Source of the DNA: Rhytidiadelphus loreus
Lineage: Eukaryota; Streptophyta; Bryopsida; Hypnales; Hylocomiaceae
Assembly (NCBI GenBank): GCA_947034895.1
Contig: OX344762.1
Coordinates: forward strand, 9,553,501-9,617,500
Length of the DNA: 64,000 nucleotides
Direction: 5' to 3'
Below the pieces are notes generated by a model, which saw only the letters and a list, made by a program, of their open reading frames with translations, made no database searches and was not told where the DNA came from. The position numbers were made by a program, and so were the translations under genes. This document shows positions 39,266 through 61,793 of this stretch, piece after piece (position 1 is the stretch's first letter; every line of letters starts with the position of its first letter).

Positions 39266-39273
39266 CTACCTAC
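39266..39273. repeat. 8-bp target-site duplication, left copy (CTACCTAC)
   Basis: CTACCTAC directly before CAGGGTTGT at 39274; the identical word follows the right end at 61786-61793. Eight bases is the diagnostic duplication length of hAT transposition. Confidence 0.93.
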
Positions 39274-39890
39274 CAGGGTTGTCTTGTCTGACATATTTTT
39301 GGGTTTAGGCGTCGTGTATGACGTCTGACGTCGCGTGTCGCGTGTCACGAAGTGTCGAGTTTACTTGACATCGCGTCGTGGAGGGGTAAAAAATTTTACC
39401 CCATGGTAAATAGATTTTGCCTACGTGGCAGGGCTTCAGAACTGACGTGGACAGCCAGCGTGGGCGACTGTGGGTGTGGGCGCGTGTAGGTCTGCCTTGG
39501 GCGACCTCGGGTGGAAAAATTGAGGCGACTATGGGTGAAGGGGCGACTGCGGGTCTGGGGCGCTAGGGCGACTTCGGGTGAAGGGGCGACTGCGGGTGGA
39601 AAAAATAGAGGTGACTGCGGGTTTAGGCTTGAAGGCGACTGCGGGTGAGTGGGCGACTGCGGGTGGAAAAAATAGAGGTGACTGCGGGTTTAGGCTTGAA
39701 GGCGACTGCGGGTGAGTGGGCGACTGCGGGTCAGGGGCTTTAGGGCGACTTCGGGTGAAGGGGCGACCGCGGCTTCGGGTACTGAGGGCGACCGCGGGTC
39801 CGACAGGTAGGGGCGACTGCGGGTTACAGGGCGACTGTGGGTCGGAGCAGCAGACAGCGACCGCGTGTTCCAGGGCGACCGCAGGTTCAG
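39274..39890. repeat. Left terminal inverted repeat and subterminal motif array of the giant hAT
   Basis: From the CAGGGTTGT terminus, 39300-39375 is rich in GACGTC and TCGCG words. From 39462 to about 39880 some 17 or more variants of GGGCGACTGCGGGT occur in the plus orientation, with G-to-T and GCG/CTC variants in the core. A 61-bp unit (GGTGACTGCGGGTTTAGG..) is repeated in tandem near 39600-39730. Confidence 0.88.
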
Positions 39891-40354
39891 TTTAGGATTT
39901 CAGTTTGGCATATTCAGTCTTTGAAGTAACACGTCACATAGGTGTTTTATAAGCGCAGAATTAGGTGCTACGTTATATTGGGGTTTACAATTTACAAGTG
40001 CAAATAATAGAGCCCATGAAATGTAAATTGGACAAACTTCTCTAATTCCAAAAATTCACCCAGTATAAGGCCACAATAATAATGTCAACAACGATTATAT
40101 TAATTAGTCATCGATATTGCTTTGAGGCGGACTTCAAATGTAGCCATACTTGCATTGCACTTTTATAACCACGTTGCAGTCATCACCTAACTGCCTACCA
40201 ATTAGAACTCAACATATATTTTAAAACCGGTAATCTGTCCCTCACTCTAATATGCTCATATGCTTGATGAAGCATTAAAAAATCCTTACACATCAGGATG
40301 AAGGCTCAAAGCTTGAACTACAAAGATTTGCTACCTAACATATAAGCTAAAACC

Positions 40355-40400
40355 TTATAATTATAATTATAACTATAACTATAACTATAACTATAATTAT
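40355..40400 (+). repeat. TATAAC/TATAAT microsatellite
   Basis: Run of (CTATAA)n-like units, about seven copies, just downstream of the transposase stop codon. Confidence 0.85.
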
Positions 40401-40419
40401 TGTCTACTTCTCTAGTACT

Positions 40420-43400
40420 CTAGTCACCAGGCGTGAATGTGGAATCACTCGGCACCTCATCAGCATTAGGGTCTGTATCTTCGTAAGACTCTTCGTTGCT
40501 CCTGTTGTCGCCCGAGCTTTCAATTTCATCATCTTCCCTTGTTACTACTTCGATTTGTACCTCACGCTCTACCTCTGAGTTCAGATTTCGAACTTCTGTA
40601 TCTACACCACTGAACCCTTCAGTTTGCACAAGTCGTTTCGTGAGCCTCAACGCATCCGTAGTTCCATCCATGTTGGATGCAGGGTGTCGCCCTCCTCTAC
40701 TTGATTGTCCAACATTCTGGGTGGAACATCCCGCTCCAATGGTACACCGTTGGACAATTTGAGTGGGTCGTTTAGGATTTCGAGGTCCTCTCTCGTCAAC
40801 CCTCCTAATACGCCTTTTCTGGCCTCTACTGTTGCGCCCTTGGATTCCTAATGATGATTCGCCAGGGCCAGACACGGATGAAGGTTGAGTGGGTTGTGGA
40901 GCTGAGCCATGAACCTCTTCATCAATCATCCGTAGAGCACCTCCACGCACCGGTGGCCTTGTTGGAAGGGTTGGGATAGACCTCCTCACTGTTGCCACAT
41001 TTGTAGTCGTCTCTGGATTCAACAGCACATTCCGACTTCGATTCATAACATATGCCAATGGCACATCATCATCATCATCTGTAGTAACAATTGTTCCGAG
41101 GGTAGATGCGTTCAATACAACGGGATTTGGTATTCCCTCGTGTACAACTTCATTGACTTCGATGGCCTCTTCTTCATGTTCGCTTCTCATTGGAACTTGT
41201 GCACTGCTTCTTAAATTGCGGGCCATATTTGGAGGCGAACTAGTTGATATTGGAGATCTAGCTTCTTCCTCTACGGGTGCCATGGGAATAGGTACGCCTT
41301 CGTCGTTGTTGTTGGGGGTGCTTTCCCTCCTCAGTGATGCATGTGCCGGCGAAATTGCATCCATATTGTGCACGACGTTCTGCGGTGGACTGCGTACAGG
41401 TGAATTTCCCGGAGAAACATACCCATCGTCACTAAAATCAAATGTATTCCCGTATATTGGTCGTGGAGGACTATATGGCGGCCTAATCATTGCATTCCAA
41501 GGATTGTTGCGCAACCGATCCTCTTCATCCCTGCAGTTCTCGCGTTTTCTCATAAAATCAGGAACAACGTCGTCTTCTTCCCCTGAAGACAAAGGCCCAT
41601 CACGCTCGTCCTCATCGTCTCCATCTGCAAGCATCTGGTCGTAAAAAATGGCTGGGTTGTGTCCACGTTTTTGACGTTCAAGTTTGTTGTTCGCGTAGAT
41701 ATACACCAATGTCTCCGCCTTTGTCGTGGCCAAGCGGTTTCGCACTTTATTGTGCACAAAGGAATACATGCTCCAATTCCTTTCACACGAAGATGCAGAG
41801 CACGTCAAACCGAGAATTCGCTTTGCAATTTTTGGAAGAGCATTGCCCCCCACACGATTCCACCATTGATGAGGCAATAATTGACATTCAATGATATCGG
41901 GAGCCTCATGTAAAGGATCGAATGCACCTGTCTTCTCTTCAAATTGAGTTAGCTCCTGCATTGCTTCCACCACTGACACGTTCAATGGTACGCTCAGTTT
42001 TCGTATGACTCGATTCAAAGCTCCCTTCGTGTAGCCATTGTTATGAATAGCCTCCACGTCACTCAAGTATGGATTTAGTAGTGCCCCCGCATAGTGTAGG
42101 TCAGTAATCATCAACTTCCAGCGAGCATCAAATTGTTTCTCACATCGTGTTGCCACCACTGGATCAAGGAAAAATGGAGCATTCTTGAGAGAATAAATGT
42201 GCTCCTTCAAGGCTGTCATCATTACTAAAGCTTTCGGCATTGCCGGGACTTTTCCATCAAAATGACGAAGACAAAGCAGCACGGGCTCTACCATATGGAG
42301 GAAATTGTCGCACTGAACCCAGAACTCTTTTGAACGGATATCTTGCCTTGCAAGTTTGGCCTTGCCCATAATGAAATGTCCATTTCTGTGGTTTTGCAAA
42401 CTCAACTCGAACGTCATGTATGTCTCATCCAGTGTCACGTTGTGCACTGCTTGCTTGCAGTCTACCAAACGATCAATCATCAAGAAATTTGTGGCAAAAC
42501 GTGTTTTGTTTGGAAGTCTCAACACTTTGTTTGGTGAAAATCTCCGAAACAACGCCAAAGTATGTTGGTATTTCTTGATGAACTTCACAATTGATGAAGC
42601 CTTTTTTACCAACTCCTTTACTCTCTGATCCTTTCCCCAGTCTTCTAAGAGTAAGTCCAAAATGTGTGCCGCACAACCCTGCCTATAAATGTGAGGGTAC
42701 CTTTCTTCCAACCTTGCCATCGCCCCCGTCATGACTGCAGCATTGTCCGTACACAATTGCACAACGTTGGTAGGCCCAACTTCCTCAATGTATCGTGCCA
42801 TCGTCTCAGTCGTGTAAGATATATCCTTCTTTTCCCCAGTACTATCCACTGATCCCCAAAAGACATCCCCGACGGGATACACCAACATCATATTTAGTAA
42901 TGGCCGCGAATTAGTATCGGACCAACCATCTGAACAAATTGTCGCTCCATACTGACTTATTGAAACCCTCGTCCGCTCCGAGACCATGGCTTCAACCGAT
43001 GCCTTCTTAACATCTATCATTTTCGTGCGAATCGCATTATACGGTGGCGGTTGGTACACGAATCCAGCTGCTGCAGTTTGTTTAACAACATTCACGAAGG
43101 CCGGGTGGCGCACAACATTAAATGAAATGTTCGCCTCGTAAAAGAAAGAAGCCCACAACCTATCCAACTCTTGTCTGCGGCCCGTCTGTAATGATTCATC
43201 CATGCTTCTTTGCCGAGAAACAGATGGCATGTTCCTCCTTCTCTCAAGCGTTGTTCCAGTAGAATCTACTGAATCAGGCGTAGGATTTGGTCTTGCATTT
43301 GATTCAAAGGGATTGAGAGACCCTTCTTCTTCGACATCCAACGCAGGTGCGACAATAGACTTTGCAACATTAACTGGTGCATCATGTCTAGTCAGTGCAT

Positions 43401-43572
43401 CATACATCTCTTCGTAACTCATGGACCTTGGAACTTGCCCCTCGCCAGTCCGAAACTTTTCTCGTACAATTCTAGGGATCTCCTTACAACGCTCCGATGT
43501 AGTCGAGCCGCCATAGCGAAAGTGAATCAATGCTCTCTTTCGTACAAATGCTTTGCTCCACCCACAAAACAC
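40420..43572 (-). CDS. hAT transposase, full-length-looking 1050-codon frame
   Basis: Cut-and-paste DNA transposase of the hAT superfamily, the likely mover of the 22.5-kb element. The first residues (KCVFCGWSKAF..H..C, starting in the same frame before the listed start, to about 43614) look like a BED-type zinc finger. The listed frame begins at a non-ATG codon, and an acceptor-like AG precedes DPWLVPC, so a 5' exon is likely. The RNase H-like core has Asp215 in CSDGWSD (DUF659 type), Asp276 in LCTDNAAV, the GCAAHILDLL motif near 300 and Glu597 in SASSCERNWS, the expected DDE set. The dimerisation region runs over about 565-640. Residues 640-1050 are an extra acidic, low-complexity tail not usual in this family. 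No stop or frameshift is present. A motif array lies upstream at 43941-44216. Confidence 0.88.
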   Translation of the reverse strand: MFCGWSKAFVRKRALIHFRYGGSTTSERCKEIPRIVREKFRTGEGQVPRSMSYEEMYDALTRHDAPVNVAKSIVAPALDVEEEGSLNPFESNARPNPTPDSVDSTGTTLERRRNMPSVSRQRSMDESLQTGRRQELDRLWASFFYEANISFNVVRHPAFVNVVKQTAAAGFVYQPPPYNAIRTKMIDVKKASVEAMVSERTRVSISQYGATICSDGWSDTNSRPLLNMMLVYPVGDVFWGSVDSTGEKKDISYTTETMARYIEEVGPTNVVQLCTDNAAVMTGAMARLEERYPHIYRQGCAAHILDLLLEDWGKDQRVKELVKKASSIVKFIKKYQHTLALFRRFSPNKVLRLPNKTRFATNFLMIDRLVDCKQAVHNVTLDETYMTFELSLQNHRNGHFIMGKAKLARQDIRSKEFWVQCDNFLHMVEPVLLCLRHFDGKVPAMPKALVMMTALKEHIYSLKNAPFFLDPVVATRCEKQFDARWKLMITDLHYAGALLNPYLSDVEAIHNNGYTKGALNRVIRKLSVPLNVSVVEAMQELTQFEEKTGAFDPLHEAPDIIECQLLPHQWWNRVGGNALPKIAKRILGLTCSASSCERNWSMYSFVHNKVRNRLATTKAETLVYIYANNKLERQKRGHNPAIFYDQMLADGDDEDERDGPLSSGEEDDVVPDFMRKRENCRDEEDRLRNNPWNAMIRPPYSPPRPIYGNTFDFSDDGYVSPGNSPVRSPPQNVVHNMDAISPAHASLRRESTPNNNDEGVPIPMAPVEEEARSPISTSSPPNMARNLRSSAQVPMRSEHEEEAIEVNEVVHEGIPNPVVLNASTLGTIVTTDDDDDVPLAYVMNRSRNVLLNPETTTNVATVRRSIPTLPTRPPVRGGALRMIDEEVHGSAPQPTQPSSVSGPGESSLGIQGRNSRGQKRRIRRVDERGPRNPKRPTQIVQRCTIGAGCSTQNVGQSSRGGRHPASNMDGTTDALRLTKRLVQTEGFSGVDTEVRNLNSEVEREVQIEVVTREDDEIESSGDNRSNEESYEDTDPNADEVPSDSTFTPGD

Positions 43573-43940
43573 GCATTTTCGAGCATGGGGGGAATTATCA
43601 ATTGGGGTACACGGTACTAGCCAAGGGTCCTAATCTTTTGTGGACCTCTGCGTATCATTCACGGTCCCCCCCCTCCCAACACCTTGTCCAGCCATGTAGT
43701 AGATCAACACTGGGTCTTCAAAGAAAATGACTACAATAATCACACTAATACTATGGAAGATGTAATGACAAAGCAACCCGCTTAGAGTGGTCTTGTAAAC
43801 CCTTCTAAACACGGTTGTTGCCCTCCGAAGAAGTTAAACGTCCGCATGAAGCCTCTTTCGAAGGTCCAAGACAAGAGTTTTATCAACGGAGCCAAGGTGA
43901 TAAAACAAGGGGTACCCCTAGAACTTTATACAAGAAAACT

Positions 43941-44216
43941 CCTTGGACCCGCGGTCGCCCCATGAGAGAATGCGGGTCCAAAAACCTGAAATCAGTCAAG
44001 TGATGGGCGACTGCGGGTCCAAAATTGGGCGACAGCGGGTCCAGAAGTGGGCGACTGCGGGTCCAGGAGTGGGCGACTGCGGGTCCAGAAGTGGGCGCCA
44101 CGGGTCCAGTAATGGGCGACTGCGGGTCCAGAAACAGGTGACTGCGGGTCAGGAACGGGCGACTGCGGGTCCAGTAATGGGCGACTGCGGGTCCAGGAAC
44201 GGGCGACTGCCATTTG
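43941..44216. repeat. GGGCGACTGCGGGT array upstream of the transposase gene
   Basis: About ten plus-strand copies spaced about 20-35 bp between 44005 and 44216 (GGGCGACTGCGGGTCCAGAAGT type), with two further words at 43941-43980. It is the same motif as at the element ends. Confidence 0.9.
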
Positions 44217-44688
44217 TTTGGATAATTCTTACATCCCCTGGGGTAATTTGGGGCCTATAATTGAAACTATGAATTCATAATTTCCACTAAAAAAATAAGC
44301 CTTGAAAATAAAAAATTCTAGTGTTTGCCCTGAAGTGGCAATGAGTAGGTCAATTCACCCTAGTCGTGACAATTGCTCTGAACTTCAATAACAAGTTCTT
44401 TTCCAATCCGGCAAGTTTTGAATTTTCCTTTTTTTTTTAATTCTCTTTTAATTCCGAAAGTCCGAACTCCCAAGGTCATTTTCCTGCCAAAATTCCTAGA
44501 ATATTCAAGTATTCACAACATTGCAAACATAAATAACCAAAAATTCATATCTATATTTATGTACTCTTGTCAAGGAACTACATAGAATTCAATGTGCTTG
44601 CATTAAAATGTTCAAAATGGATAATATCCTTTTATATATACATAAGATGGAATATACATAGTCCTCAAAAATGTGCTAAAAATGAAAA
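44217..44688. other. AT-rich intergenic spacer in the giant hAT
   Basis: Between the motif array upstream of the transposase and the stop codon of the next gene. Nothing recognised other than low-complexity AT sequence. Confidence 0.5.
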
Positions 44689-46296: not shown

Positions 46297-46323
46297 TGGA
46301 GATGCTCTTGAGATTTGGGGCAA

Positions 46324-46390
46324 GGAATCTAAACTTAACCCTAAACCGCAAAGTATTATTTAGCTAAACTTAACCCTAAACCGCAAAGTA
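46324..46390 (-). promoter_or_regulatory. Duplicated telo-box-like element upstream of cargo gene 1
   Basis: Two tandem copies of a block holding TTAACCCTAAACCGCAAAG lie directly before the gene; read with the gene it is CTTTGCGGTTTAGGG. AACCCTAAA is the core of the plant telo-box found near transcription starts. A related inverted pair (GGTTTAGG..CCTAAACCGCA) lies before the gene at 55442. Confidence 0.5.
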
Positions 46391-46471
46391 TTATCTAGCG
46401 ATTAGTGAGTGATGGAGTAAAATCAAGAACATGAGCCACATGTAAGTGAAACTCAAAACCCAAGCTCCCGG

Positions 46472-46516
46472 GCACGCAATCAGCCACTGTAAAGTAGGTG
46501 AAAGGCAGTACGCAAC
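46472..46516 (-). promoter_or_regulatory. Conserved promoter-like block of cargo gene 1
   Basis: Read with the gene: TGCGTACTGCCTTTCACCT, then TACAGTGGCTGATTGCGTGCC. It closely matches blocks before the kinase-like gene (51361-51404) and the gene at 55442 (55179-55219), and more weakly 61179-61214. It lies 175 bp upstream of the ATG. Confidence 0.6.
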
Positions 46517-46557
46517 AAGAAGAGAAAGTGGCGAAGTCGGGTGGGGAGACAGCTAAT

Positions 46558-46865
46558 TAACCCGCAATCGCCCTGGGGCGAGTGCGGGAAGGGACGCGTG
46601 CAGGTCTGAGAGCGACTGCGGGTAGGGCGACTGCGGGTCTAAGGGGCCGACTGCGGGTAGGGCGACTGCGGGTCTGGGGCTACTGGGGATGGGCGACCGC
46701 GGGTCGATGGCTATAGAAGTACTGGGGTCCTGCGCGACTGCGGGTAGGGCGACTGCGGGTCTGGGGCTACTGGGGATGGGCGACCGCGTGTGGGGCACCA
46801 CAGAGTAATTTCTGGACCCCTACAGTGGGGCGACCGCGGATGGGCGACTGCGGGTACAGGGCGGG
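46558..46865. repeat. GGGCGACTGCGGGT array upstream of cargo gene 1
   Basis: About eleven copies, mainly plus orientation (AGGGCGACTGCGGGTCTGGGGC type), beyond the promoter block. Includes an internal duplication of GACTGCGGGTAGGGCGACTG. Confidence 0.88.
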
Positions 46866-48120
46866 ATTTTGAATTTTTGAACCTCTAAGACTTTCACTTT
46901 GAAGTTCTCTTACACAAAATTGTGGACATAAATTCTAGTTACCAATGCACTTCATAAAAATGTATTGCACCTTTTCATCTTTTATTTAAAAATTTGGGTT
47001 ATGCATCTTTAGCCATTTTATTAATTATTGTTGCAACTTATTAGATTTGACATGCAAAAAGAGGATTCCCACCCTAACATCACTTCTGCAATTTCAATAA
47101 GAAAATAATCAAACATAAGAAATTTACCATCCATGATTCACATGGTTGCGTTTTATTTTCCAATGCAATCTCTATTATGTTTAGTTTGAATTTGTATGGT
47201 GAATCCATTGTAAAACAAGATCCAACTATGAAGAATGTGGGATTCTTGATCAATGTAGACCACTTTCGGAGAGCTCCAAAAGAAGGGGTTTGGGAATTGA
47301 GGAATAAATACCTTTTATTCATTTATGGTCAAGTGTGATTGACACATTATAAATTGCATGAGAGAACAAAACTCAATATAATCAATTATACAATGCATAG
47401 GATAGGTGTAGTAAGATGGTTGTTCAAATATCTCATAAGGATTGGGTGTGACAGCATGAGCTCCCATATAACTTTCATCATGTGCTTCATCAAGCACCGT
47501 GAAGGTGTAGTTGGGAACTAATTGTCACAATTAATTGTCATAGCTATTTCCCAGTTGATTTCATGGTTTTGTTCAAATTTTATTTATCTGTACATTCATA
47601 GGTATCCAAACAATAAAACTTGTTTCATATTAATTAAAAGTGTAGCCATCATATTTACAAACAAAGGGATTAAATCAAGGGCATACATTTGTACATTTTC
47701 AATATTTGGGGATTTCAAACTTGTGAACCAAGAATAACAAGCCACAACATTTATGGGTATATATTTTATTGGGGGGGTCACATTTATGGGTATATATTTT
47801 TTGGGAGGGGTCACATATGTAAACCATTAAAGTATTGGGCACTAATCAATTAAACATTCATATACCATGGACTGTTTAGCAAAATATGATCATCCATCTG
47901 AGATAAACAATCCATGCATTGTTTAGCAAAATCATAGTATAGAAATGTAAAATGAAGTTCTTTGTCAAGCACATTGCTATTTCACATGTCTAGCATGACT
48001 TTAGTACTATTATCTTCATAAATAACTTATTTCTTTTTATGATCCCAACTCAAAAATCAAAATAGGGTCTTATGCCATGGTACAAGGCTGCCGTTTGATG
48101 CACCACAACAATGTCTCTAG
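46866..48120. other. AT-rich spacer with a 37-bp duplication
   Basis: No gene recognised. A 37-bp unit with TTTATGGGTATATATTTT is repeated at about 47748-47817. The right end is the 3' flank of the spliced gene. Confidence 0.45.
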
Positions 48121-49440
48121 TCACGAACGATTTGCCCGTGGCACAAGGTTGTCCAAGTTTGCGCGAGCTTGGTTTAACCTATTATTGGTCTGCTCAAAGA
48201 TATCCGTGGTGTTGATTTGAACGCTCAGAGATTGTGTAAATGCGCGTTCCGTCCCGTGCTCATCATCCTAAGGTGGAATTGTCATTAGTACATATGATAT
48301 TTACAGAATGGGGTACAAACAATACTAACTTAGCAAATATATTAACTCGTGTTGTGGTATTGCACTAACCTTAATGAGTTGTAACAACAAGCATCCATTC
48401 TCAGACTCGGAAAGTTTCTCGACATCCTCAAATTCTTCTAATAAAGCCCTGCATCTCCCGGCCCCCCATATCAATGAATATTAAAACATAACAACTACAT
48501 ATGGGTATTTTTAGCATATAATCTTATAATACAAGTTCTATACTAGAACAACCGAACCTGAGGTTTGTGCAATCTTTTCCTTGCCGAACCCACACATATT
48601 CTTCCATCATGGCCCACCCCTCCCTAATGGCCTCATCAAATTTGGCTCCCCAAACAATATCGCGTGTGTTTTGTATCAAACACATCACTCGTCCTGCAGC
48701 AAATAAGCACTAATAGTGAGATGAAATGTCCACCACTAACTATCCAACTAGAAATGTTCATTAATACATGTTCATTTCATTATTCAAGGATTCAAATCAC
48801 CTATACAAAATGAAGGGCAATATTTTACTCACCCATTTTGCTGGCTTGGAAATGGCCTTTGGACTCATTGCATTGGCCATAATGAGCAAAGCAATACAAT
48901 TTGTAGCCTTTCCAAAAGTCCTTAATCCTATTTCAAAGATCACAAATCAATTCCAATAGAATAGTCATTGTCATGGTGATTCTCCCACCTATTAAAAAGA
49001 CATTGTCTACAATACAAGTGGATGACAATAAGGAAGTCAAACGCAAACTAAACAAATTTTTACCGGAAATATTCATGGTCGAGAATAATTATGACTTCCT
49101 CTGAGCACTTGCTAAATTGAACACCTGCCATTAAGCCTGTAAGGAGCCAAATAACTAATCATTAGCAATGCAAGAAGATTAAATTTGAATAGGCTACATA
49201 ACAATTGAGGCCCCCCTACGTTACTATAACACCCAAAAATGAAAGAGAATCAATGAAGAACCAAATGAATCATTTTCATTTGAATTGCTAATTGTTTTAA
49301 ATGTGAATTTAGTGTACCTTTTTTCGGTGACTTCACACCCATTTGTGTGTGCATCCTTATTATTCAACAACTTTGCCACAATGAATGCAATTGCCGTTTC
49401 AAGGCCCTCTACATCAAATGGCTTTGATATTCTCACTATC
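48121..49440 (-). CDS. Spliced gene of small exons, unknown function (3' part)
   Basis: On the minus strand six exons can be placed: 49318-49440, 49064-49136, 48833-48927, 48558-48693, 48370-48454 and 48121-48267, ending in TGA. All borders are GT..AG (for example ATGG|GTGAGT). Phases fit at every junction from the second exon on. The first junction fits only with an alternative donor inside the first exon, giving lower certainty there. The joined product includes CSEEVIIILDHEYFR, IKDFWKGYKLYCFAHYGQC, VMCLIQNTRDIVWGAKFDEAI and a C-terminus rich in charged helix (LLEEFEDVEKLSESE). I recognise no family. The open reading through five junctions is strong evidence of a real gene even though each exon is too short to stand out. 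Further 5' exons are likely. A motif array lies upstream. Confidence 0.6.
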
Positions 49441-49636
49441 CTAAACTAATGGAAAAGATTTTGGGTTCATTGAAGTATACAAGAAGTGTCTGCTGTATTG
49501 TTGGCTGTTTGTGGGAAACCAAAAAAACCACGAGACCTCCACAACATTGGGCCCACATTCAGCCACGACAAGGTAGGTGAACTACAAAGCGCAGTTATGA
49601 AAATTATTGACCACAGGCTGGAACAGCCCATGAAAT

Positions 49637-50330
49637 ACCCGCGGTCGCCAGGGGCGCATGCGCTAACCCTAACACGGATACTAGGGCGACTGCGCGTGGG
49701 GCGACCGCGGGTCCGGTCCAAGGATCCCTCGCGTCTTTCAAGGGCGACCTCGGGTGAGGGCGACCTCGGATCAGGGCGACTGCGGGTCAGGGCGACCTCG
49801 GGTCCTCGAGGGGGAAACACATTTCAAAATCCCCCCTCCATCAGAGCGACTGCGCATAGGGGGCGACTGCAGGTCAAGGAGAAAATGCAAACTCCTTAAC
49901 CCGCAGTCGCCCCCTACGCGCAGTCACCCATATGGAAGGGGAGGGAGACACCAAATACTTTTCCGCCCTCTATCAGGGCGACTGCGCGTAGAGGGCGACT
50001 ACGGGTCAAGGTGGGAGACACCAGAAATTTCGAAAATGCAATCTCCCCCCTTCCATCAGGGTGACTGCGCGTAAGGGGCGACTACGGGTCAAGGTGGGAG
50101 CAACCTAACTATTTCAAAATGCAATCTCCCCCCTTCAATCAGGGCGACTGCGCGTAGGGGGCGAGTGCGGGTCAAGGTGGGAGACACCAGAAATTTCGAA
50201 AATGCAATCTCCCCCCTTCCATCAGGGCGACTGCGCGTAGGGGGCGACTGCGGGTCCCCAGATCACTTCCAAAATCAGACCTGGGGTTCTAGGGCGACTG
50301 CGCTTTGGGCGACTGCGGGTATGGGCATGT
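49637..50330. repeat. Long GGGCGACTGCGGGT array with a 115-125 bp higher-order repeat
   Basis: Some 20 motif words, many as pairs GGGCGACTGCGCGTAGG / GGGCGACTGCGGGTCAAGG. Between them the phrase AATGCAATCTCCCCCCTTC recurs at about 50038, 50119 and 50202, giving a higher-order repeat. It lies upstream of the spliced gene (minus) and also of the next gene (plus). Confidence 0.88.
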
Positions 50331-50957
50331 TTCACAAGATTAATTTTTTTTTTGGGACCCCTCTCCCTTATTGTTTCTAATTCCCTTTAATCATATGTTA
50401 CTTCCTCCATTTTGTTTACAAATTCAATAAGACAAACAAATCCTAGGTTTTGCATTAGCTCTCCAACACTCCTTTGGCAAGAAGTTCCAAATGAAAGTTT
50501 TATGTACATTCTAATAGTGGGGAGGTGTAATTAGATTTATTTGGGCATGATTCACGAGATGGTGTTTTTTTTGGGACCTCTCCCTTATTGTTTCTAATTC
50601 CCTTTTATCATATGTTACTTCCTCCATTTTGTTTACAAATTCAACAAGACAAAAAAGACATGATTCTGTTTTAGGTCTAAAACACTACATCTCGTGTAGG
50701 ATGTGTAAGTATTTTATGTAGGTTTAAGGATTTGATTCTAGATAAAAGTTGTATTATTGTTTTCCAAGGTCTAGGGTCTAGGGTTTAGGGTTTGGGAAAC
50801 CCTTCACATTGTGAGAATAATTCTTCCATTGCCTTGCTATGTCTTTGATATGAACTGACGCCTAATATTTATTACCAATTTTGGATGTGAGATAAGGAAA
50901 AATCAATTAGAATATGCTGCAGATGCTAATTAGTGTTGGATCAGATTGGTTGTTGGT
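50331..50957. other. Spacer with a direct duplication of about 100 bp
   Basis: GGGCATG.TTCACRAGAT..GGGACC and CTTATTGTTTCTAATTCCC..TTACTTCCTCCATTTTG appear at about 50322-50435 and again at about 50542-50655, 220 bp apart. A telomere-like phrase (GGGTCTAGGGTTTAGGG) lies near 50773. No gene. Confidence 0.6.
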
Positions 50958-50959
50958 TT

Positions 50960-51310
50960 AGGGCGACCTCGGGTCAGGGGCAACCGCGGGTCATCGACGA
51001 AGCAAAAAACACATTTGAATCAGGGCGACTGCGCGTAGGGGGTGACTGCGGGTCGAAGAGACTTCTTTGTGGGCGACCGCGTGTGCAAGTTTTGGGATGG
51101 TTTAGTTGGTACCCGCGGTCGCCCACGATCCGCAGTCGCCCTTGATGCACAGTCGCCCATTTCAGCGCTCCAAAAACGCGCAGTCGCCCATTCCCGTTGT
51201 CTTCAGACCCGCAGTCGCCCCTCCTCAAACCCGCAGTCGCCCCACTTCAGACCCGCAGTCGCCCCCTCCCGACCCGCAGTCACCCAAACGCACGCGCCCT
51301 GAGGCGACTT
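50960..51310. repeat. GGGCGACTGCGGGT arrays in opposed orientation upstream of the kinase-like gene
   Basis: From 50960 to 51090 the words are in plus orientation (GGGCGACCTCGGGT, GGGCGACTGCGCGT). From 51110 to 51300 they are in the opposite orientation (ACCCGCGGTCGCCC, ACCCGCAGTCGCCCC). The array therefore has a centre of inversion near 51100. Confidence 0.9.
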
Positions 51311-51360
51311 TAGGTACTTAAGCGTTAGCCCCACTTTCGATTCTCACCTTACTTTAGCCT

Positions 51361-51404
51361 TGCGCACTGTCTTTCACCTACCTTCAGGTGGCTGGATGCG
51401 TGCC
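51361..51404 (+). promoter_or_regulatory. Conserved promoter-like block of the kinase-like gene
   Basis: TGCGCACTGTCTTTCACCT, then CAGGTGGCTGGATGCGTGCC. Same order and spacing as at 46472-46516 (minus) and 55179-55219. It lies about 90 bp before the ATG at 51495 and is followed by a G run and TTTTTACCCTTT, as at the 55442 gene. Confidence 0.6.
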
Positions 51405-51494
51405 CGTGGGCTGGGGTTTCAATTGGGGGGGGAATTTTTACCCTTTCAATCTACGAATTTTGAACTACGGTTTTGAATTGTTCCTAAGTACAAC

Positions 51495-53088
51495 ATGGCT
51501 TTTCCACATGAAGGCAACACTACAAGGAGAAAGTCTTTATGGGATCTGGACCTTGATGATCCAATTTTTTTCGAGGTTCCGATAGCTGTAAATGAAAACG
51601 AAGAAGGAGGGAGTCAAGAGCGACGGAAGGGCAAGAAGCAGAAGTCAGCACATGACAAGGACTCCAACTATCCTCCCCCGAGTTATACCCGATATGCATA
51701 CGAAGCGTGTCTCCAGTGGTACGCAGGGAAAAGTGTACAATTCTTGGAGGCAAGCTATTTGAGGTGTCCTACAACTGGTAGTGTGGCCTTGCCAAATGAT
51801 TTACAAGCACGGATTTTAACCAAGCTAAAGGGATCCGATGATTTCGCAGACATTGACTTGACATATTCTTCGAGACTATTTGAATGGCTTGATAACACAT
51901 TGAAAGCGGTGATGTTTCAATACCAAGAAATTGATAGAGGAACATCGACCGTTTCTTCCGATAGTAGAGGAATCAGAAGACATCAAGGCATTCCGCCAAA
52001 AAATGGAGTGGTGGTCCAGCGCAGTGAAGAAATTAGCAAGAGGCTCGGCAAGGGGTTTTAAGTGGAAAAATGTAGCGGTGCAGGCAGCATTTGCACGAGA
52101 TGGTGGATTGTGTATCACGTGGATCCCCGATACGGCGAAAGTGGTGCCCCTTAGTGCTTTTGAACGTGAAGGGGGGTATGCAAAAGTGCGTAAGGTACGC
52201 ATTGAAGGAATGGATACAATTCCAAGCTACATCGCTTTTGCTGGGAAAGTATCCAAGGCAATAAACCCGCGCGAGGGGAGAGCGCAATGATCCATGGAGG
52301 CCCTTGCATGCCCCTTGAACCACCTTGGCATCATTAAGTTTTTTGCCATTCATTCTCGCACGAATGAAGCGTACACTTTGTGGTGGAATGGGGGCCATTT
52401 GAATGAGTTGAGGCATTTAGATTGTTCTGTATCACCAACCATTGACTGGCATGAAATGCAAAAAGCCACAAGACTTCCTGAAGAGAAACAAAAAGAACTT
52501 GGTCTCTTCCGAAGGCACAAGGCAAAGTTGGCATGGGCTTTAGTATATGTGACAAATCTCATGCACAAGTGCCGCATGCTACACAATGACTTGTCTCCCA
52601 TGAACATCATGTTGCATTTTCCGGATTATTCAAACGACATAATCAACATTGGAATTTGTGATTTTGGAATATCAAGTCGTTTTGACGAAAACGTGCCTTC
52701 ACATTTTGGAAAGCCATCTGAGGCCGAGAGGGATCAATACCGAGAAGGTCGTTGGTGGGTTGCCCCGGAGTTGTTTTATGCATATGGACCTCCAAATTCC
52801 GATACAAGCATACCGATCATGCAACAACGGTATAAATATACGCAACAGTCAGACTCGTATTCTATTGGGAAGTTGACCGAATGGATGAGAATTGGTGATA
52901 TGGACGATTGGGACAAGGATTTGTTCAAGAACCGTGAGGGATCAATGTACTTTGGAATGAAGTTGCGTGAACTCGTGAACACTGACCCAAAGAAGAGACC
53001 AACGTGTATAGAGATCACAAATTCCCTTATGTCTCCACCATGGTCCATGATGCCCCCCGAATTGGTGTTCCGAGACTCACCTTTGTAA
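51495..53088 (+). pseudogene. Protein-kinase-like cargo gene with one frameshift and one stop
   Basis: Reading from the ATG at 51495, the frame encodes a polar N-terminus and RYAYEACLQWYAGKSVQFLEASYLRCP. Near 51930 it shifts by one base into IEEHRPFLPIVEESEDIKAF and runs to 53088, crossing TGA at 52288-52290. Kinase landmarks are EREGGYAKVRKV (Gly-rich loop), FAGKV (probable VAIK lysine), LHNDLSPMNIML (catalytic loop, H-N-D in place of H-R-D), ICDFGISS (DFG), RWWVAPEL (APE) and DSYSIGKL. The fold is a full Ser/Thr-type kinase domain, and the key Asp and Asn are present. The two lesions make the copy inactive unless sequencing errors or recoding explain them. It shares its promoter block with the WCHI genes. 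Confidence 0.7.
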
Positions 53089-54854: not shown

Positions 54855-55157
54855 ACCCGCGGTCGCCTGGGACCCAAGGTCGCCTAGGACCCGCTGTCGC
54901 CCAGGACCCGCGGTTGCCTAGGACCCGCAGTCGCCCTGGACCCGTAGTCGCCCTGGACCCGCGGTCGCCCACTCGCCCGGGCTCCTTCGACCCGTGGTCG
55001 CGTTGGAGCACCTGTCCAGACCCGCAGTTGCCCCACTCTAGAACCCGCGGTCGCCCTGGAGCACTTGCTCTGACCCGCAGTCGCCCCACTTCAAGACCCG
55101 CACGCGCCCCAGGGGCGACCTCGGGTACATCAGCGTTCTCTTCCACCCGCAGTCGCC
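54855..55157. repeat. ACCCGCAGTCGCCC array upstream of cargo gene 3
   Basis: About fifteen copies in the minus orientation of the motif (GGACCCGCGGTCGCCTAGGAC type), with one plus-orientation word GGGCGACCTCGGGT near 55114. It ends about 20 bp before the conserved promoter block. Confidence 0.9.
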
Positions 55158-55178
55158 ATTAAATTTTCCCTGGCATTC

Positions 55179-55219
55179 TGCGCACTGTCTTTCACCTGCT
55201 GACGTGGCTGAATGCGTGC
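55179..55219 (+). promoter_or_regulatory. Conserved promoter-like block of cargo gene 3
   Basis: TGCGCACTGTCTTTCACCT, then GACGTGGCTGAATGCGTGC. Nearly identical to the block before the kinase-like gene, followed again by a G run and TTTTTGTCCCTTT. A telo-box-like inverted pair lies nearer the start at about 55374-55402. Confidence 0.6.
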
Positions 55220-55441
55220 ACAGAAGCTAGGGGTTTGAGTTGTGGGGGGGGATTTTTGTCCCTTTGCACAGCTCATTTTATTCACGCTTGGATGACATAG
55301 GGTGTTTCACGAGAACATTGTATTTTTGTAAATGTTAAATGTGATAGGATTACGTTTAGCATTTTTTACACCTACGGTTTAGGCTTGCAACCCTAAACCG
55401 CATAGTACTTAGTTGGCTACTTTTGAGACGAAGTGATCGTT

Positions 55442-56932
55442 ATGGAGGGCGAGGACTCTCAACCGCCACACGGTATGTCAAGATACCGACTTCGGCTCAA
55501 CAAAAAGGCGGTTCGTGACAAGGATCGTAAAAGGAGCGGCAAACCTCGCAAGAAGCGTGTACCCATCTTGTTGCATCCAAAGATGAAGGCCTTTTTGGGA
55601 TGGGAAGTAGAACCAGAGCCTTGGACATATGAAACTGTAAACAAATATGTGGATTGGTGCCACATCAACAAGTTGTTCCCGTTTTGGCGACACCCTTTGC
55701 ACGTGAAGTCTAATAAGGCAAATTTGGCTTACTACAAGAGTGTTGTCTTCCAGCGAAGGTGTTTGGAGGTATGGCAGCAACTCTATTTGGAGTCCCAGCC
55801 TTATCGAAATGACAACTTCTCTTTCTATCTTGTGCAAATGGTGTACGTTGAAGTTCAATTGAAGAAAAAGGTAGATTGGACAACCTTGAAGGAGCTTCCT
55901 ATCGGTGACCGCCCGGACAGACCGATAGTGCTGGATGAAGAAGGACTTCTTCAAGCAAATCAGAAGCTTTTAGAGGCAAAGCCTGGCAAGTTGGCTGTTG
56001 GTGATGACCAAGTTCAATGGTCTTCAACTTCTAGCTCAGATGAGCACACTCACGAATACGATGGATATTCTTTTGAGAGTGACGACGAAGACATTGGCAA
56101 AGAAAAACAAGAGGCGGCTGAAGACGTTCAAGTTGACAAGAAGGGCAAGAGGAAGCTTGAGGAGCCGCAATCATTGTCCAAGATTCAAAAACAAAGCGAA
56201 GATGTTCATGTACCGATCAATGTGAACCGTTCTGGTGCAGACATTGGGTCTAGCGGAAGTAGTAACAATGATTCGGAAGACAATTTGGAGATGTTGGGCA
56301 CTAAGATCAAAAGTGCACGAGCAGCTTTGACTTCAACAGTAGCGGATCTTATGAATTTGAAAGAGAAGGTACAACATCTTCCAGTGAATCCAACTGTTGT
56401 GGATGGGTTGAAGAAGGAGTTAGAGGCGACTGAAAACGCCGTTGCTGAAAATGAGAAGATTTACTCTAAGTTAAACAAAAGTAGAGTAAATTATTTCAAG
56501 AAGATCGAAGACGGGCGAGCACACATTTCCGATGATTTAGCGGTGCTTCAAAATAAACTTGATCTTTTGCAACGTGATAAATGGTCCCATCAAAGCGAAA
56601 GGAGAAGCTTGAATCTTCAAATACGTGAGCTAGAGATGGAATATTATGATGATGCCTTAAAAGAAGCCAAAAAAGAGGGCATCTTGGCTTTAGCTCCGGA
56701 TTATGGTAGCAATACAGAAGAAAGAGCAACGCTTTTTTATTTGGTGAAGCTACTAGAGAAAAAACAAGAGTTGTTGCACGAGGGCATATTGGACTTGGAG
56801 CGCCACATCCTTTATTTTAAGGAATGGCGCAAGTGGGCCTATGAAGGCATAGGTGCCACCCGTGCGGAACTTCAAAGAATGAGACCGGAGCCCAAAGAAA
56901 GTGACTTTGTGAATAGTGAAAAAAATGCTTAG
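55442..56932 (+). CDS. WCHI-domain coiled-coil protein (496 aa), cargo gene 3
   Basis: Start chosen at ATG 55442 (MEGEDSQPPHG); a GTG three codons earlier is in frame. A basic N-terminus is followed by the shared domain: PEPWTYETVNKYVDWCHINK, LFPFWRHPLH, NKANL, FQRRCLEVWQQLY, MVYVEVQLKKKVDWTTLK (about residues 50-150). The region 180-300 is acidic and Ser-rich. Residues 300-490 are charged helix, probably coiled coil (RDKWSHQSERRSLNLQIREL). Intact, with no RING finger. Similar in plan and length to the gene at 44689-46296, which suggests duplication inside the element. Function unknown; a DNA- or protein-binding accessory of transposition is one possibility without direct evidence. Confidence 0.75.
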   Translation: MEGEDSQPPHGMSRYRLRLNKKAVRDKDRKRSGKPRKKRVPILLHPKMKAFLGWEVEPEPWTYETVNKYVDWCHINKLFPFWRHPLHVKSNKANLAYYKSVVFQRRCLEVWQQLYLESQPYRNDNFSFYLVQMVYVEVQLKKKVDWTTLKELPIGDRPDRPIVLDEEGLLQANQKLLEAKPGKLAVGDDQVQWSSTSSSDEHTHEYDGYSFESDDEDIGKEKQEAAEDVQVDKKGKRKLEEPQSLSKIQKQSEDVHVPINVNRSGADIGSSGSSNNDSEDNLEMLGTKIKSARAALTSTVADLMNLKEKVQHLPVNPTVVDGLKKELEATENAVAENEKIYSKLNKSRVNYFKKIEDGRAHISDDLAVLQNKLDLLQRDKWSHQSERRSLNLQIRELEMEYYDDALKEAKKEGILALAPDYGSNTEERATLFYLVKLLEKKQELLHEGILDLERHILYFKEWRKWAYEGIGATRAELQRMRPEPKESDFVNSEKNA

Positions 56933-58604
56933 TGGTTGGATCTAGTGTGGTAGAAAAAAACAATTTGGCCTTCCAATTTTTGATTTTCCAAAGGTTTTGT
57001 GGAATAAAGAAATTCACACCTTTGTTTTTGAAATGTACATATGTTTTTATTATATTTTGAATACGAGGGCTATGAATTTGGTGTCTTTGCAAGAATGGAT
57101 GTCAGAGATGGTACCTACGGGCTGAAATTTGGGACTGAATTTTTGAAACTTTATTTGAAGATAGGAAAAACGATTACCTTTGTGGTAATATAACTTTTTT
57201 TCCAATCGGTGCCCGGGAACAAAAGTTATGCCCATATAGTCCAAACTCCAAAGCAGGGGAGAATGGGCAGCAAAAAAATGTGACAAGCATTTGAATTTAT
57301 TTTTCTAAGTTTTTTTCCCTCATAGATTATAATTTTGTCTATCCGGAAAGCTTTTTTTCATTTCATTTGGATATTTTATGAGAAAGTTATGGACAATCTT
57401 GTTTATTGGGCAATTAGAGCTTCTGGTGGGAAAAATACCTTGTAAGATTAATTTAGGAACGCAATTTTGGCAATTGTTCAAGAAAAGAAGTTTGACATGG
57501 TTTAGTTTGCTTGCAACAACAATTTGACCGTGGGGATTAGTGCATTTTAATTCTATCTTAGAAAGAAAATAGATTTTCATTCAATCTCATATGTACTTCT
57601 ATTCTACAAGTTTTTTAAGAATGAAAATTAAGTTTTTTTGAAAACCTTTTTTTTATTTAGACTCTCAACTCAATTCTCCACTATATTTGTTTAAAGCTCA
57701 AAACTCTGTAGTGCAAGAAATTAAAGTGAAAAATGTTAAAAGTCAAATAATGTAGTCCAGCAATGTGCTGAAAAAATTGTTTTTTTCACTCTAAATGCGG
57801 ATATCTTGCAATCTGTAAGATGAAAAATTCTGAAATTTTTTCCACACATTCTCATACTAGTAAGGTGTAAGATCCTATGGTTATGTGTGGGAAAAAAACA
57901 ATTTTCAAAAACAATTTTGGATACTTTAAGAAATTGTTGAGTAGAAGTAGGTAAGATGTAGTTGTAAAATTTAAATAATGAATATCTCTAAAATGAAATG
58001 AAAATGGTGAGAGTGTGCTATCAAGTGAAGTTAACTATGTGACCGGACCTAATTTTTTTTTAGATTGTAGAAATTGTCTGGAGAAACAAATCCTACAAGC
58101 AACTTTTAAAAGAAGAAGCTGTAGACTCAAGTTGCCCGCCAAAGAAAATGGTCCATAACTTTCTCATAAAAAATCTGAATGGAATGAATCAAATTTTTCC
58201 ATGTAAACCAAAACATGTTGTATGAGAAAAAAATCCAAAAAGAAAAAATTCATTAAAAGATTTGAAGATAGCAATTTTGTGGGGACCGTGTATGGAATCA
58301 TTGTGCGAGGCATTACAACAAATGTATTTGCATTTCACCAATTACATTTTAGGCTACAAATGTATAAGTATGCCCAAACCTTCAAAACCAAAGCAATAGA
58401 AGGTTGTTGTCCATAAGCATAGTAGTACAATACACAGCCAAGGCGGTATAGTTTTAGAAGCCAACATCTGAACCCTAACTTTTGCTAGAGTACTACATTG
58501 TGCGAGTATGGATATACTATGGCCCTTATACTATGGGCCTTACATCTTGTATACTACTACGATTAACTAGAACCACCGTTGAAGTAAGTATCTCATAGAA
58601 ATAT
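56933..58604. other. AT-rich spacer between converging genes
   Basis: 3' flanks of the genes at 55442 and 58605. Parts resemble 20.8-22.3 kb, next to the other RING copy. No gene recognised. Confidence 0.45.
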
Positions 58605-61104
58605 TTAGTTCAAGTCCATTGGATTGTTATGAGAACCACTCGTTGCACCTTGTTCGTAATCATTGGACTCTCCAACAACAAGTTTCTTCTTAGCACGAGT
58701 CCTTGAAGCAGGTCCATCTGCTTCTAAAATAGATTCCAAGACATTGGAGTTCTTGAGAGCTTCAAGTGTCCTTTTAGTTTGCGGAGAGTGTAACTCCAAT
58801 AGATAATCGAGTGCTTGGCTTTGATAATAAGGCCCGTATGTTGAGTCGAGGTAAGCCATACTATTCAAGTCTTCTGGAGTGGCATTTTCATCACGATTAG
58901 CCCCTTGTTCACCTTCAAAATTCCAACGGTGTCCTTCCAGATGAGCACCCCACTTGAAGGTTTGGGATGTCTTATCAAAATATCCACCAAGGCATTGAAA
59001 AAAAAACGCCCTCTTCCCTGCATTGTGAGCTCCTTTTCCCATAAGGTTGAATGCCACTCTTAGAATTTCACGCGGGTCCGTTTCCCAATTCAATTGTGAG
59101 GCAGCAACTCCCATTTCTTGATCATGTAGACCTTCTCGCCAACTCCAAAGCAAGTCTCGTCCCCAAAATCGTGTCTCTGTTGTCGTGTCTCTATTGTGTT
59201 CCCAAGAAGGTGGCATGTAAGTCATCAAGTTGAACATGGTATACAAGCGATCATGGAATGGTGCTGCACAAATCACACATCGTCGTCTAATCAGACATTG
59301 AGTGATGAGACACTAAGGATGGTACACATGTGTACATGATCCAAGTGCCCATCCTCCTTCTGGCCCAAATTGTTCTAGACATATGGGGCATTTGGTATGA
59401 TCCAAGACGAAATGAGTTGGCTTTGGCCACAATAGACTTTGGTCTTTTTCGTTGAAGTGACTAGACATCTGATTTCCATGGTCCCAACCATTTTGTGCCC
59501 AGTCTATGACATTTTTTTCCGCCACGTCAAGCATGGACATGTTATCCGGAAACATGTCCTCCATCAATGCCCATGATGTCAATCCATTCTCTCGTTTAGG
59601 GGCATTTGCTACAAAGTTCTTCGAAACTTTGTCTAGCTCTTTCGCAACTTGTTGAGATCGATCCACGGAGAGAATGCACGCGACCTTCCAATGATAGTAT
59701 GTTGCTGCCAACACTGCCAACTTCTCTCGAAGCATTCTATTTTCTTCAGCCAAATCAAGTTCCTTTGATGATTGTAGATGTGGAATGGCAGGAAACGAAA
59801 GTGAATCCTGAGTCCCTTGCAAACCATCAACGTGCGGATTGCTAGAATCTCTTGAGACGAACGGAAGTGGTGCCATTGGAAGAATTGAAGAACGCTTCGT
59901 ACGCTTGGCAGGGGGAGAAAGGTGAATGACATCGCTGGTGAGGTCCCCAACAAGCTTGTCCAAGTGATGTGGATCCTGCTCAACAAAGGTTTCGTCCATG
60001 TCCGACTGTGAAAGTCTGACGCTCTTTTTCTCGAAGGCCTTGTAATTCTTTGGATTGTTGAGAAATGAGAGCATTTTTTTGTTCACATGTAGACCGCCAT
60101 TTCTTCACATCACCTTCTAAGGTTGCAATTTGTGCATCCTTGGTCTTCAAGAGGTCGAGAGCCTTCGCCAACGTCATCGCATTGTGAACAACATCAGATT
60201 CAGACTGTGGAATGGGAATGTGACTTGTGGCACATACGGGTGAGTCGTCACTTAAAGCAAAGTCGAAGACGTTGCTGGCGTCTTGTGGTGGCAAGATTGG
60301 AGTCGCAATTGTGGTTGAGGCTGATGCCAATCTAATTTTCGTGGTGGACCGTCACACCTTCGCAGGATGTTTCATCTTCTTTCCCCGTGATGATGAAGCG
60401 GCTTGAACATTTGGATCTGGAACTGGAACTGGAACTTGGACGGGGGTGATAATCTGCTCCTTCACTCGTACAAGCTTAGGAATCCGTGTGCCATCTGAAT
60501 CATTATCCTCTTCTGATTCTTCCGTGTCCACCTCTTGAGTTTCTTTGTTTTGTGGATCACTTCGAAAAGGCCCAAGTCCACCCTCCGGAAATTTGAGAAC
60601 CCCTCTTGGAATTATTCCAACTTCTGGACGCTCCACGTAGGTACTTTCTTTAATCGTGATCCAGTCAACTTGTTTGTTCAAGGCGACCTCAGCATAGGCA
60701 CCTCTAGCAATGAACAAAGGGGCCTCATTCCTATCTACAAAAGGGGTTTTGTAGAGGACCTGCCACAATTCTAAACACCTTCGTATGAAAGCTGGATTTT
60801 CACAATACTTCAAATTTGCCTTGTTATTGTGTCGGTTGTGATGATGGCGCCATGCCGGAAAGAACTTCCCGATGTGACACCATTCAATGTAGTCTTCACA
60901 CACCTGCATACTCCAAGGCTCTGGCTCCTCGTTCCACTCTTTGAAAGCTAGGTGGTTATCATTGTTCAACACATGCCATCGCTTCTTGTGAATGTTACCC
61001 CTCCTTTTTCTAGTCTTGTCTTTGGCAGCCTTCCTAATTGCACCAGGAGTGCGTACAGTGGAAAAAACCGGAAGGGACCCCTCATTGCTACCTCCAGTTG
61101 CCAT
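58605..61104 (-). pseudogene. WCHI-domain / RING-H2 fusion gene, cargo gene 4, with two stops and a frameshift
   Basis: From ATG 61104 the protein starts with a basic tail and the shared domain (EPEPWSMQVCEDYIEWCHIG, FFPAWRHHHNRHNNKANL, FIRRCLELWQVLY, AYAEVALNKQVDWITIK). The frame crosses TGA at 60352-60354 and continues into a coiled coil (DLLKTKDAQIATLEGDVKKW). Near 60010 it shifts by one base and runs on through helical sequence to HTKCPICLEQFGPEGGWALG and CTHVYHP. A TAG at 59313-59315 follows, then CLITQCLIRRRCVICAAPFHD and a C-terminal region to 58605. The Cys/His pattern is RING-H2, suggesting an E3 ubiquitin ligase. At the TAG position the paralogue at 22.4-23.2 kb has Met, so this was once a sense codon. 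This copy is probably inactive. Confidence 0.7.
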
Positions 61105-61178
61105 GAGATTTGCAGACGTCGCAAAATTCTAAGAACCAAATGATAGCAAAAAATAGTATATATATTATCCAAAAGGGT

Positions 61179-61214
61179 CACGCATGCAGCCAACAAAGGT
61201 TGCAAGACAGAAAG
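61179..61214 (-). promoter_or_regulatory. Weaker copy of the conserved promoter-like block
   Basis: Read with the gene: CTTTCTGTCTTGCAACCTTTG, then TTGGCTGCATGCGTGACCC. The GTGGCTG.ATGCGTG core is recognisable; the 5' part is diverged. It lies about 75 bp before the ATG at 61104. Confidence 0.4.
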
Positions 61215-61264
61215 CCTCAATGGAAAATGAAGGTGATAGCATGATGATGGGCTACTGGCTATAT

Positions 61265-61785
61265 AGGGCGAGTGACTTCGGTCTAGGGGGGCGAGTACGG
61301 ATAGGGCAACTGCGTATCCAGCGACTGCGGGTCTAGGTGGGGCGACTGCGGGTCCGACGTGGGTGACAACGGGTCTCGAGAGGGCGACAGTGGGTCCACC
61401 ACCAGGTCTAGGTACCTTTTGCGCACCCGCGGTCGCCCACCCAAGAACACTTCCTGAACCCGCAGTCTCCCTGCCAAACCCACAGTCGCCCACCCGCGGT
61501 CTCCCTCAGAAATCCGCAGTCGCCCACCCGCAGTCGCCCTCACCCACCCGTAGTCGCCCACCCGCAGTCGCCCTCGCCCACCCGCAGTCGCCCCTACCCG
61601 CACTCTCCTACCCGTACGCGCCCTCCAGTTTGCCAAGTGGATGCCATGTGGCATCCACCTGGAGGGGGGTAATTTCCTGTAAAGTCAAAGGTAAATTTGA
61701 CTTTTCGTGACGTCGCGCGGGCTCTACTAGACGTCGCGCGACGTCTGTCTGTCACGGTGTCGCGCTGTCGCAGCGAACAACCCTG
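61265..61785. repeat. Right subterminal motif array and terminal inverted repeat of the giant hAT
   Basis: From 61265 to 61410 the motif is in plus orientation; from about 61425 to 61625 it is in the opposite orientation (ACCCGCAGTCGCCC, GCGGTCGCCC). Beyond this comes GACGTCGCG-rich DNA and the terminal CAGGGTTGT (complement), ending at 61785. It mirrors the left end. Confidence 0.88.
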
Positions 61786-61793
61786 CTACCTAC
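61786..61793. repeat. 8-bp target-site duplication, right copy (CTACCTAC)
   Basis: Identical to 39266-39273. Lies 33 bp below the stop codon of the neighbouring hAT gene. Confidence 0.93.

What the first reader, a model, noticed from the sequence alone, without database searches (positions are those of the whole stretch)
39266..61793. A 22.5-kb hAT transposon carrying its own gene set
Perfect 8-bp duplication CTACCTAC, inverted CAGGGTTGT ends, mirrored subterminal arrays and an uninterrupted hAT transposase frame define one unit of 22,512 bp with at least five cargo genes. Known autonomous hAT elements are mostly a few kb with one or two genes. A hAT element of this size with kinase-like, RING-like and novel-domain genes would be a new kind of giant DNA transposon, comparable in concept to Starships or Polintons.
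Basis: partly seen in the sequence, partly recalled or inferred. Interest (0 to 1): 0.95.

Follow-up and report, generated by a model that had tools for sequence, protein, structure and literature searches.

The report
Giant five-gene hAT jumping element
A plant genome carries many copies of an unusually large jumping gene of a well-known kind, which moves with its own fixed set of five genes and marks each gene's start and both of its ends with the same short repeated DNA word.

Summary
The unit is real. Window 39274-61785 (22,512 bp) is a hAT transposon with an 8-bp target duplication and CAGGGTTGT ends. In the host assembly (407 Mb) capped searches found at least 40 left ends and 43 full-length transposase genes. 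Both ends were read at 15 of 22 loci: 9 perfect duplications, 4 with 7 of 8, 2 none; 12 of the 15 span 22.1-23.0 kb. A diverged sister element (29,827 bp, fam2) carries the same five genes, reshuffled, inserted in a 22-kb copy. Between the two families all five genes show dN/dS 0.18-0.37, so the four extra genes look like conserved element genes, not recent passengers. Three of the five proteins share a domain without known structural match, one of them with a RING; another is a kinase. A 13-14-bp word occurs 95 times in the element and never in the other 41.5 kb, in arrays 210-284 bp upstream of all five genes and at both ends. A 361-bp derivative with the ends but no array has inserted, so the arrays are probably regulatory, as in VANDAL/VANC. 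Corrections: this copy's transposase has an early stop, two other genes are broken, and I recognise four extra genes, not five or more. Their function is inferred.

The parts
39266..39273 (.). left copy of 8-bp target-site duplication CTACCTAC
61786..61793 (.). right copy of target-site duplication CTACCTAC
39274..39388 (+). left end (CAGGGTTGT terminal repeat plus GACGTC-bearing subterminal stretch); about the part shared with the 361-bp array-less derivative
61685..61785 (-). right end, mirrored; about the part shared with the 361-bp derivative
39463..39887 (+). left subterminal array, 18 words, all +
43947..44193 (+). array of 9 words, 252 bp upstream of the transposase start codon, 8 of 9 antisense to the gene
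46560..46856 (+). array of 12 words, 264 bp upstream of ORF2, 11 of 12 antisense
49637..50321 (+). array of 19 words with an 83-bp tandem repeat; no adjacent gene recognised
50962..51285 (.). array of 12 words (5 +, then 7 - next to the gene), 210 bp upstream of the kinase gene
54855..55158 (-). array of 12 words, 284 bp upstream of ORF4, 11 of 12 antisense
61320..61609 (.). array of 13 words (3 + next to the RING gene, 10 - towards the right end), 216 bp upstream of the RING gene
40420..43695 (-). hAT transposase gene (DUF659, hAT dimerisation domain); open 40420-43629, stop at 43630-43632 after 21 codons
   Evidence: several other copies open for 1137-1138 aa
44689..46296 (-). ORF2, 535 aa from first Met, open; shared domain (WCHIxKLFPxxRH) then a long C-terminal part
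51495..53088 (+). protein kinase gene, broken here by one frameshift and one stop; open for 536 aa in copy C3:29.55 Mb
55442..56932 (+). ORF4, 496 aa, open; shared domain at the N-terminus
58605..61104 (-). RING protein gene: shared domain, middle part, RING; broken here by two stops and one frameshift

Best explanation
This is one copy of a large, recently spread family of hAT DNA transposons that carry a set of five genes. Shown: the unit inserts as a whole (8-bp duplications, empty sites, many copies), and all five genes show purifying selection between two diverged families. Inferred: the hAT transposase, acting on about 110 bp at each end, cuts and pastes the unit; the array word is a self-recognition tag read by element-coded protein(s), most likely the three relatives that share the WCHI domain, which switch on or un-silence every gene of the element at once; the kinase and the RING protein act on host silencing, repair or cell-cycle proteins, or on the element's own proteins, in favour of expression and movement. 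The confidence given is for the shown part; for the array-reading idea it is about 0.4.
For: Copies and ends. Interior of two further copies and of the 29.8-kb sister element. Empty sites. dN/dS transposase 0.23, ORF2 0.37, kinase 0.21, ORF4 0.35, RING part 0.18. Array 210-284 bp upstream of all five start codons; a fraction of 0.0003 of 20,000 random placements put an array within 300 bp upstream of all four genes away from the right end (the 300-bp limit was set with the distances in view). In the sister element the kinase gene is inverted and its array sits on the new upstream side. Ends-only derivative without array words inserted with a perfect duplication. Word number differs between copies (95, 107, 102). 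Kinase catalytic residues (loop glycine, Lys, Glu, HND, Asn, DxG) are invariant in 11 aligned sequences, two from this genome and 9 of the 57 relatives. Analogy: VANC binds same-orientation motif arrays in non-coding parts of VANDAL elements (PMC5735166, passages).
Against: No binding, expression, methylation or transposition data. The shared domain has no structural match, so DNA binding is not shown. The window copy is damaged in three genes. Two of 15 loci with both ends read have no target duplication (C3:29.55 Mb, C1:73.01 Mb), and at 7 of 22 the right end was not reached. Arrays also occur where I see no gene: 49637-50321 here, and three in fam2 (9587-9967, 10935-11218, 16887-17112). dS between families is 1.0-1.8, near saturation, so dN/dS is rough. 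Only four elements were read in full.
Confidence: 0.9

Rival explanations
1. An ordinary hAT transposase gene with captured host genes between the ends (pack-type or Starship-like passenger cargo).
For: Kinase and RING are common host domains. Whether these genes also occur as host genes could not be tested.
Against: The same five genes are in two families whose transposases are only 57% identical, with dN/dS 0.18-0.37 for each gene and identities of 42-73%, around that of the transposase; three of them share one domain; all have the same array upstream.
Confidence: 0.06
2. The arrays are transposase-binding sites needed for movement in cis, as subterminal repeats are in other hAT and CACTA elements (recalled), and their internal copies are by-products.
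For: Arrays lie mirrored near both ends.
Against: A 361-bp derivative with about 110 bp of each end and no array word inserted with a perfect 8-bp duplication. Internal arrays sit at a near-constant distance upstream of genes in the window, and upstream of genes in fam2 too.
Confidence: 0.25
3. The segment is a chance or composite stretch: one small hAT element with its ends split by unrelated insertions.
For: Other transposase-like ORFs lie in the window outside the element.
Against: Two other copies align over the whole length, at 96-97% in their main pieces; 95 of 95 array words lie inside; right ends lie at the predicted distance in 5 of 10 transposase-selected loci, and the same five carry the kinase at the predicted place.
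Confidence: 0.01
4. The element is integrated DNA of a virus that uses a hAT transposase (Teratorn-like).
For: Large size and a multi-gene set.
Against: No capsid, polymerase or packaging domain in Pfam scans of the main ORFs; no relatives found in the viral contig collection with transposase, RING or kinase.
Confidence: 0.02

Closest known systems
hAT superfamily transposons (Ac, Tam3, Tol2, Gulliver)
   Same: DUF659 and hAT dimerisation transposase, short CAGGG terminal repeats, 8-bp duplications, deletion derivatives and miniature elements
   Different: 22-30 kb with five conserved genes and arrays upstream of them; the longest of 276 plant hAT sequences was a consensus of 7,144 bp (PMC6027215, passages); Tol1 and Tol2 are 4.4 and 4.7 kb (PMC10175614, passage)
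VANDAL elements with VANC anti-silencing proteins (Arabidopsis MULEs)
   Same: element-specific short motif in same-orientation arrays in non-coding parts, tandem-repeat number changing between copies, extra genes beside the transposase (PMC5735166, passages)
   Different: other transposase superfamily, other motif, no likeness to VANC shown (not compared directly); arrays upstream of all five genes; kinase and RING genes added
Starships (fungi)
   Same: a large eukaryotic transposon moving several genes
   Different: tyrosine-recombinase captain (PMC12506042, passages) and accessory cargo in a few copies (PMC10175614, passages); here a hAT transposase, a shared gene set, many copies
ToxhAT (fungal, 14 kb)
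   Same: name and gene carriage
   Different: its TA duplication led its authors to reassign it away from hAT as ToxTA (PMC12506042, passages)

Membership tests
hAT superfamily | hAT transposase (DUF659 plus hAT C-terminal dimerisation) | tested here: met
   both Pfam matches above cut-off in window copy and sister element
hAT superfamily | 8-bp target-site duplication | tested here: met
   of 15 loci with both ends read, 9 perfect, 4 with 7 of 8, 2 none; 7 further loci not resolved
hAT superfamily | terminal inverted repeats of at least 8 bp, plant pattern [T/C]AGNGNNG | tested here: met
   CAGGGTTGT; pattern from PMC6027215 passages
hAT superfamily | cut-and-paste movement | tested here: inconclusive
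   three empty sites show insertion; excision not observed
VANDAL/VANC anti-silencing system | element-specific same-orientation motif arrays in non-coding DNA | tested here: met
   specificity tested against the rest of the window only, not the genome
VANDAL/VANC anti-silencing system | MULE-type (VANA) transposase | tested here: not met
   the transposase is hAT
VANDAL/VANC anti-silencing system | VANC protein | not tested
   no direct comparison with a VANC sequence; the extra ORFs gave no such Pfam name
VANDAL/VANC anti-silencing system | element protein binds the motif and removes methylation | not testable with these tools
   needs binding and methylation data
Starship | tyrosine-recombinase (DUF3435) captain at the 5' edge | tested here: not met
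   no such Pfam match in the main ORFs
Polinton/Maverick | family-B DNA polymerase and integrase | tested here: not met
   none in the main ORFs; unassigned stretches not gene-modelled

The most novel reading that the evidence does not exclude
A lineage of giant plant hAT transposons that evolved its own self-licensing system, independent of VANDAL: one DNA word placed before every element gene and at both ends, read by a trio of proteins with a possibly new fold, and backed by a kinase and a RING ubiquitin ligase aimed at host silencing or repair. Relatives of the kinase, RING and WCHI proteins on many other public contigs, mostly short, suggest that the lineage is widespread.
Probability: 0.35. 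Interest if true: 0.93.

Novelty: new variant of a known kind. Interest (0 to 1): 0.82.

Why it matters
hAT elements are textbook small transposons. A hAT lineage of 22-30 kb with five co-conserved genes, in dozens of copies or more, widens what a cut-and-paste transposon can be and how large a unit a hAT transposase may move. The upstream arrays plus three related proteins without known structural match make a possible second, independent case in which transposon anti-silencing or self-regulation can be tested, with kinase and ubiquitin-ligase-like genes as unusual helpers.

Tried and rejected

Literature: nothing like this was listed in the searches; the library lacks most subscription papers and bioRxiv, so this is not proof of novelty. 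PMC6431247 and PMC13317346 (word counts and passages only) hold no whole word hAT.
Full report
OBSERVATION. The window holds CTACCTAC / CAGGGTTGT ... ACAACCCTG / CTACCTAC with ends at 39274 and 61785, 22,512 bp in all. The word GGCGACTGCGGGT with up to two mismatches occurs 95 times, always inside these ends; 100 dinucleotide shuffles gave a mean of 0.39 and a largest value of 2. The words form seven clusters.

HOST AND COPIES. The window lies in a 407-Mb assembly of 489 contigs, five of them over 50 Mb. Of seven contig ends fetched, two read TTTAGGG repeats, as in plants, four read N and one neither. A search with 535 bp of the left end gave 40 places at 88-100% identity, the window included, whose matches begin within three bases of the element's first base (the window's own match also takes in the duplication), plus one 69% match to array sequence; only 40 of 1,214 candidates were scored. 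A search with the transposase gave 43 full-length matches at 96-100% (43 of 1,585 candidates scored); 16 of 43, the window copy included, have no stop inside the matched part. Both counts are lower bounds.

ENDS AND DUPLICATIONS. I looked at 22 loci: the window and 11 chosen from the left-end list, and 10 of the 15 other transposase matches without stops. Both ends were read at 15 of 22. Nine have perfect 8-bp duplications, four have 7 of 8, two have none (C3:29.55 Mb and C1:73.01 Mb). At seven loci the right end was not reached: three of the first twelve, four of the last ten; one of the four (C4:11.58 Mb) has a fam2-type kinase within its span, so a nested insertion may explain it. Twelve of the 15 span 22.1-23.0 kb (my subtraction of coordinates). 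Of the other three, two are 5.3-kb deletion derivatives with the same breakpoints, and one has a right end 13.6 kb away without duplication, which may not belong to the same insertion. Of the 10 transposase-selected loci all 10 have the left end; five have the right end at the predicted distance, and the same five have kinase sequence at the predicted place at 97-99% identity.

EMPTY SITES. A 29,827-bp sister element (fam2, C1:82699779-82729605) sits in a 22-kb-family copy with CCCTGGAG/CCCTAGAG; with it and one duplication removed, the flanks align to the window element in one piece over 592 bp at 97.6%. A 361-bp miniature element in another copy (GTCTCAAC on both sides) gives 398 bp at 98.2%. 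A 22,755-bp copy lies in the right-end array of another copy; its joined flanks align to window 61189-61785 at 82.9% (640 bp of flank), a weaker case because the site is a tandem array. The empty site of the window copy itself was not tested: the tool did not complete.

GENES. Five genes: transposase; ORF2; kinase; ORF4; RING protein. ORF2, ORF4 and the RING protein share an N-terminal domain of about 130 aa. It is also in relatives from public contigs, among them six proteins of 761-896 aa that have the domain and the RING region in one chain. AlphaFold gives a mostly helical domain (pLDDT 83.7) with no PDB match. The kinase keeps its catalytic residues in 11 aligned sequences, two from this genome and 9 chosen of 57 relatives. 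In the window copy three genes are damaged: transposase (early stop), kinase and RING. The interior was read in full for only four elements: window, C3:29.55 Mb, C3:36.08 Mb and fam2; in each of these, at least one of the five genes is interrupted.

SELECTION. Between the 22-kb family and fam2, from frames open as they stand: transposase 57% identity, dN/dS 0.23; ORF2 42%, 0.37; kinase 54%, 0.21; ORF4 46%, 0.35; C-terminal part of the RING protein 73%, 0.18; dS 1.0-1.8 (Nei-Gojobori, rough at this distance). Within the 22-kb family five comparisons give dS 0.008-0.024 and dN/dS 0.38-1.0, as expected for recent copies that decay after insertion. In a capped search the fam2 kinase has 92 matches at 97-100%, itself included (92 of 1,432 candidates scored), 74 of 92 without stops; I read only one fam2 element, so that these 92 lie in such elements is assumed.

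ARRAYS. Array-to-start distances in the window are 252, 264, 210, 284 and 216 bp for the five genes. With five arrays placed at random in non-coding DNA, a fraction of 0.0003 of 20,000 trials put one within 300 bp upstream of all four genes away from the right end; the 300-bp limit was set with the distances in view. The words next to each gene mostly read antisense to it; at the ends they point inward. In fam2 the kinase gene is inverted and has its array on the new upstream side; distances for three fam2 genes are 362, 198 and 357 bp. Fam2 also has three arrays away from the five genes, and the window one. Word counts differ between copies (95, 107, 102, and 96 in fam2). The consensus of the word is nearly the same in both families, with one position changed in about half of the fam2 words; these were found with the window's word, which favours likeness. 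The 361-bp derivative has about 110 bp of each end and no word, so the arrays seem not to be needed for movement in cis.

MECHANISM. Shown: insertion as a unit; a conserved gene set; arrays tied to gene starts. Inferred: the transposase acts on the ends; the WCHI proteins read the arrays for activation or anti-silencing, by analogy with VANC (PMC5735166, passages); the kinase and RING protein change host or element proteins. I put the unit and its gene set at about 0.9 and the array-reading idea at about 0.4.

KNOWN KINDS. By transposase, ends and duplication it is a hAT element. By size and gene content it is outside the hAT range that I could find in print (longest plant consensus 7,144 bp, PMC6027215, passages). 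It resembles VANDAL in anatomy but is not one. It is not a Starship: no recombinase captain in the ORFs scanned.

Noticed in passing
G000 C1:82699779-82729605 (L012-L014, L029): 29.8-kb sister element (fam2) with the same five genes reshuffled, nested in a 22-kb-family copy; its RING gene is split by a roughly 4-kb insertion with CTGTGAG/CTCACAG ends.
   Followed up: partly
L023 (copy at C4:26.79 Mb): 361-bp miniature element made of the two ends and unrelated filling, with perfect duplication GTCTCAAC.
   Followed up: yes
C1:32.39 Mb and C4:46.78 Mb (L015, L021): Two 5.3-kb deletion derivatives with the same breakpoints; both keep the middle 47331-51239 with its arrays, where I see no gene. 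Why that part is kept is unexplained.
   Followed up: partly
window 57297-57419 / 58126-58248: 72% inverted repeat of 123 nt in a stretch without recognised gene; related sequence occurs in fam2.
   Followed up: no
window 34603-36505 and 61827-62588: Other transposase-like ORFs by eye, without a confident Pfam match; the second lies just outside the right end.
   Followed up: partly
window 8461-13063: Run of plus-strand ORFs (346, 244, 362, 267, 173 aa); no confident Pfam match in the four scanned; possibly another large mobile element.
   Followed up: partly
window 13537-14388: NLI-interacting-factor-like phosphatase domain, likely an ordinary host gene.
   Followed up: no
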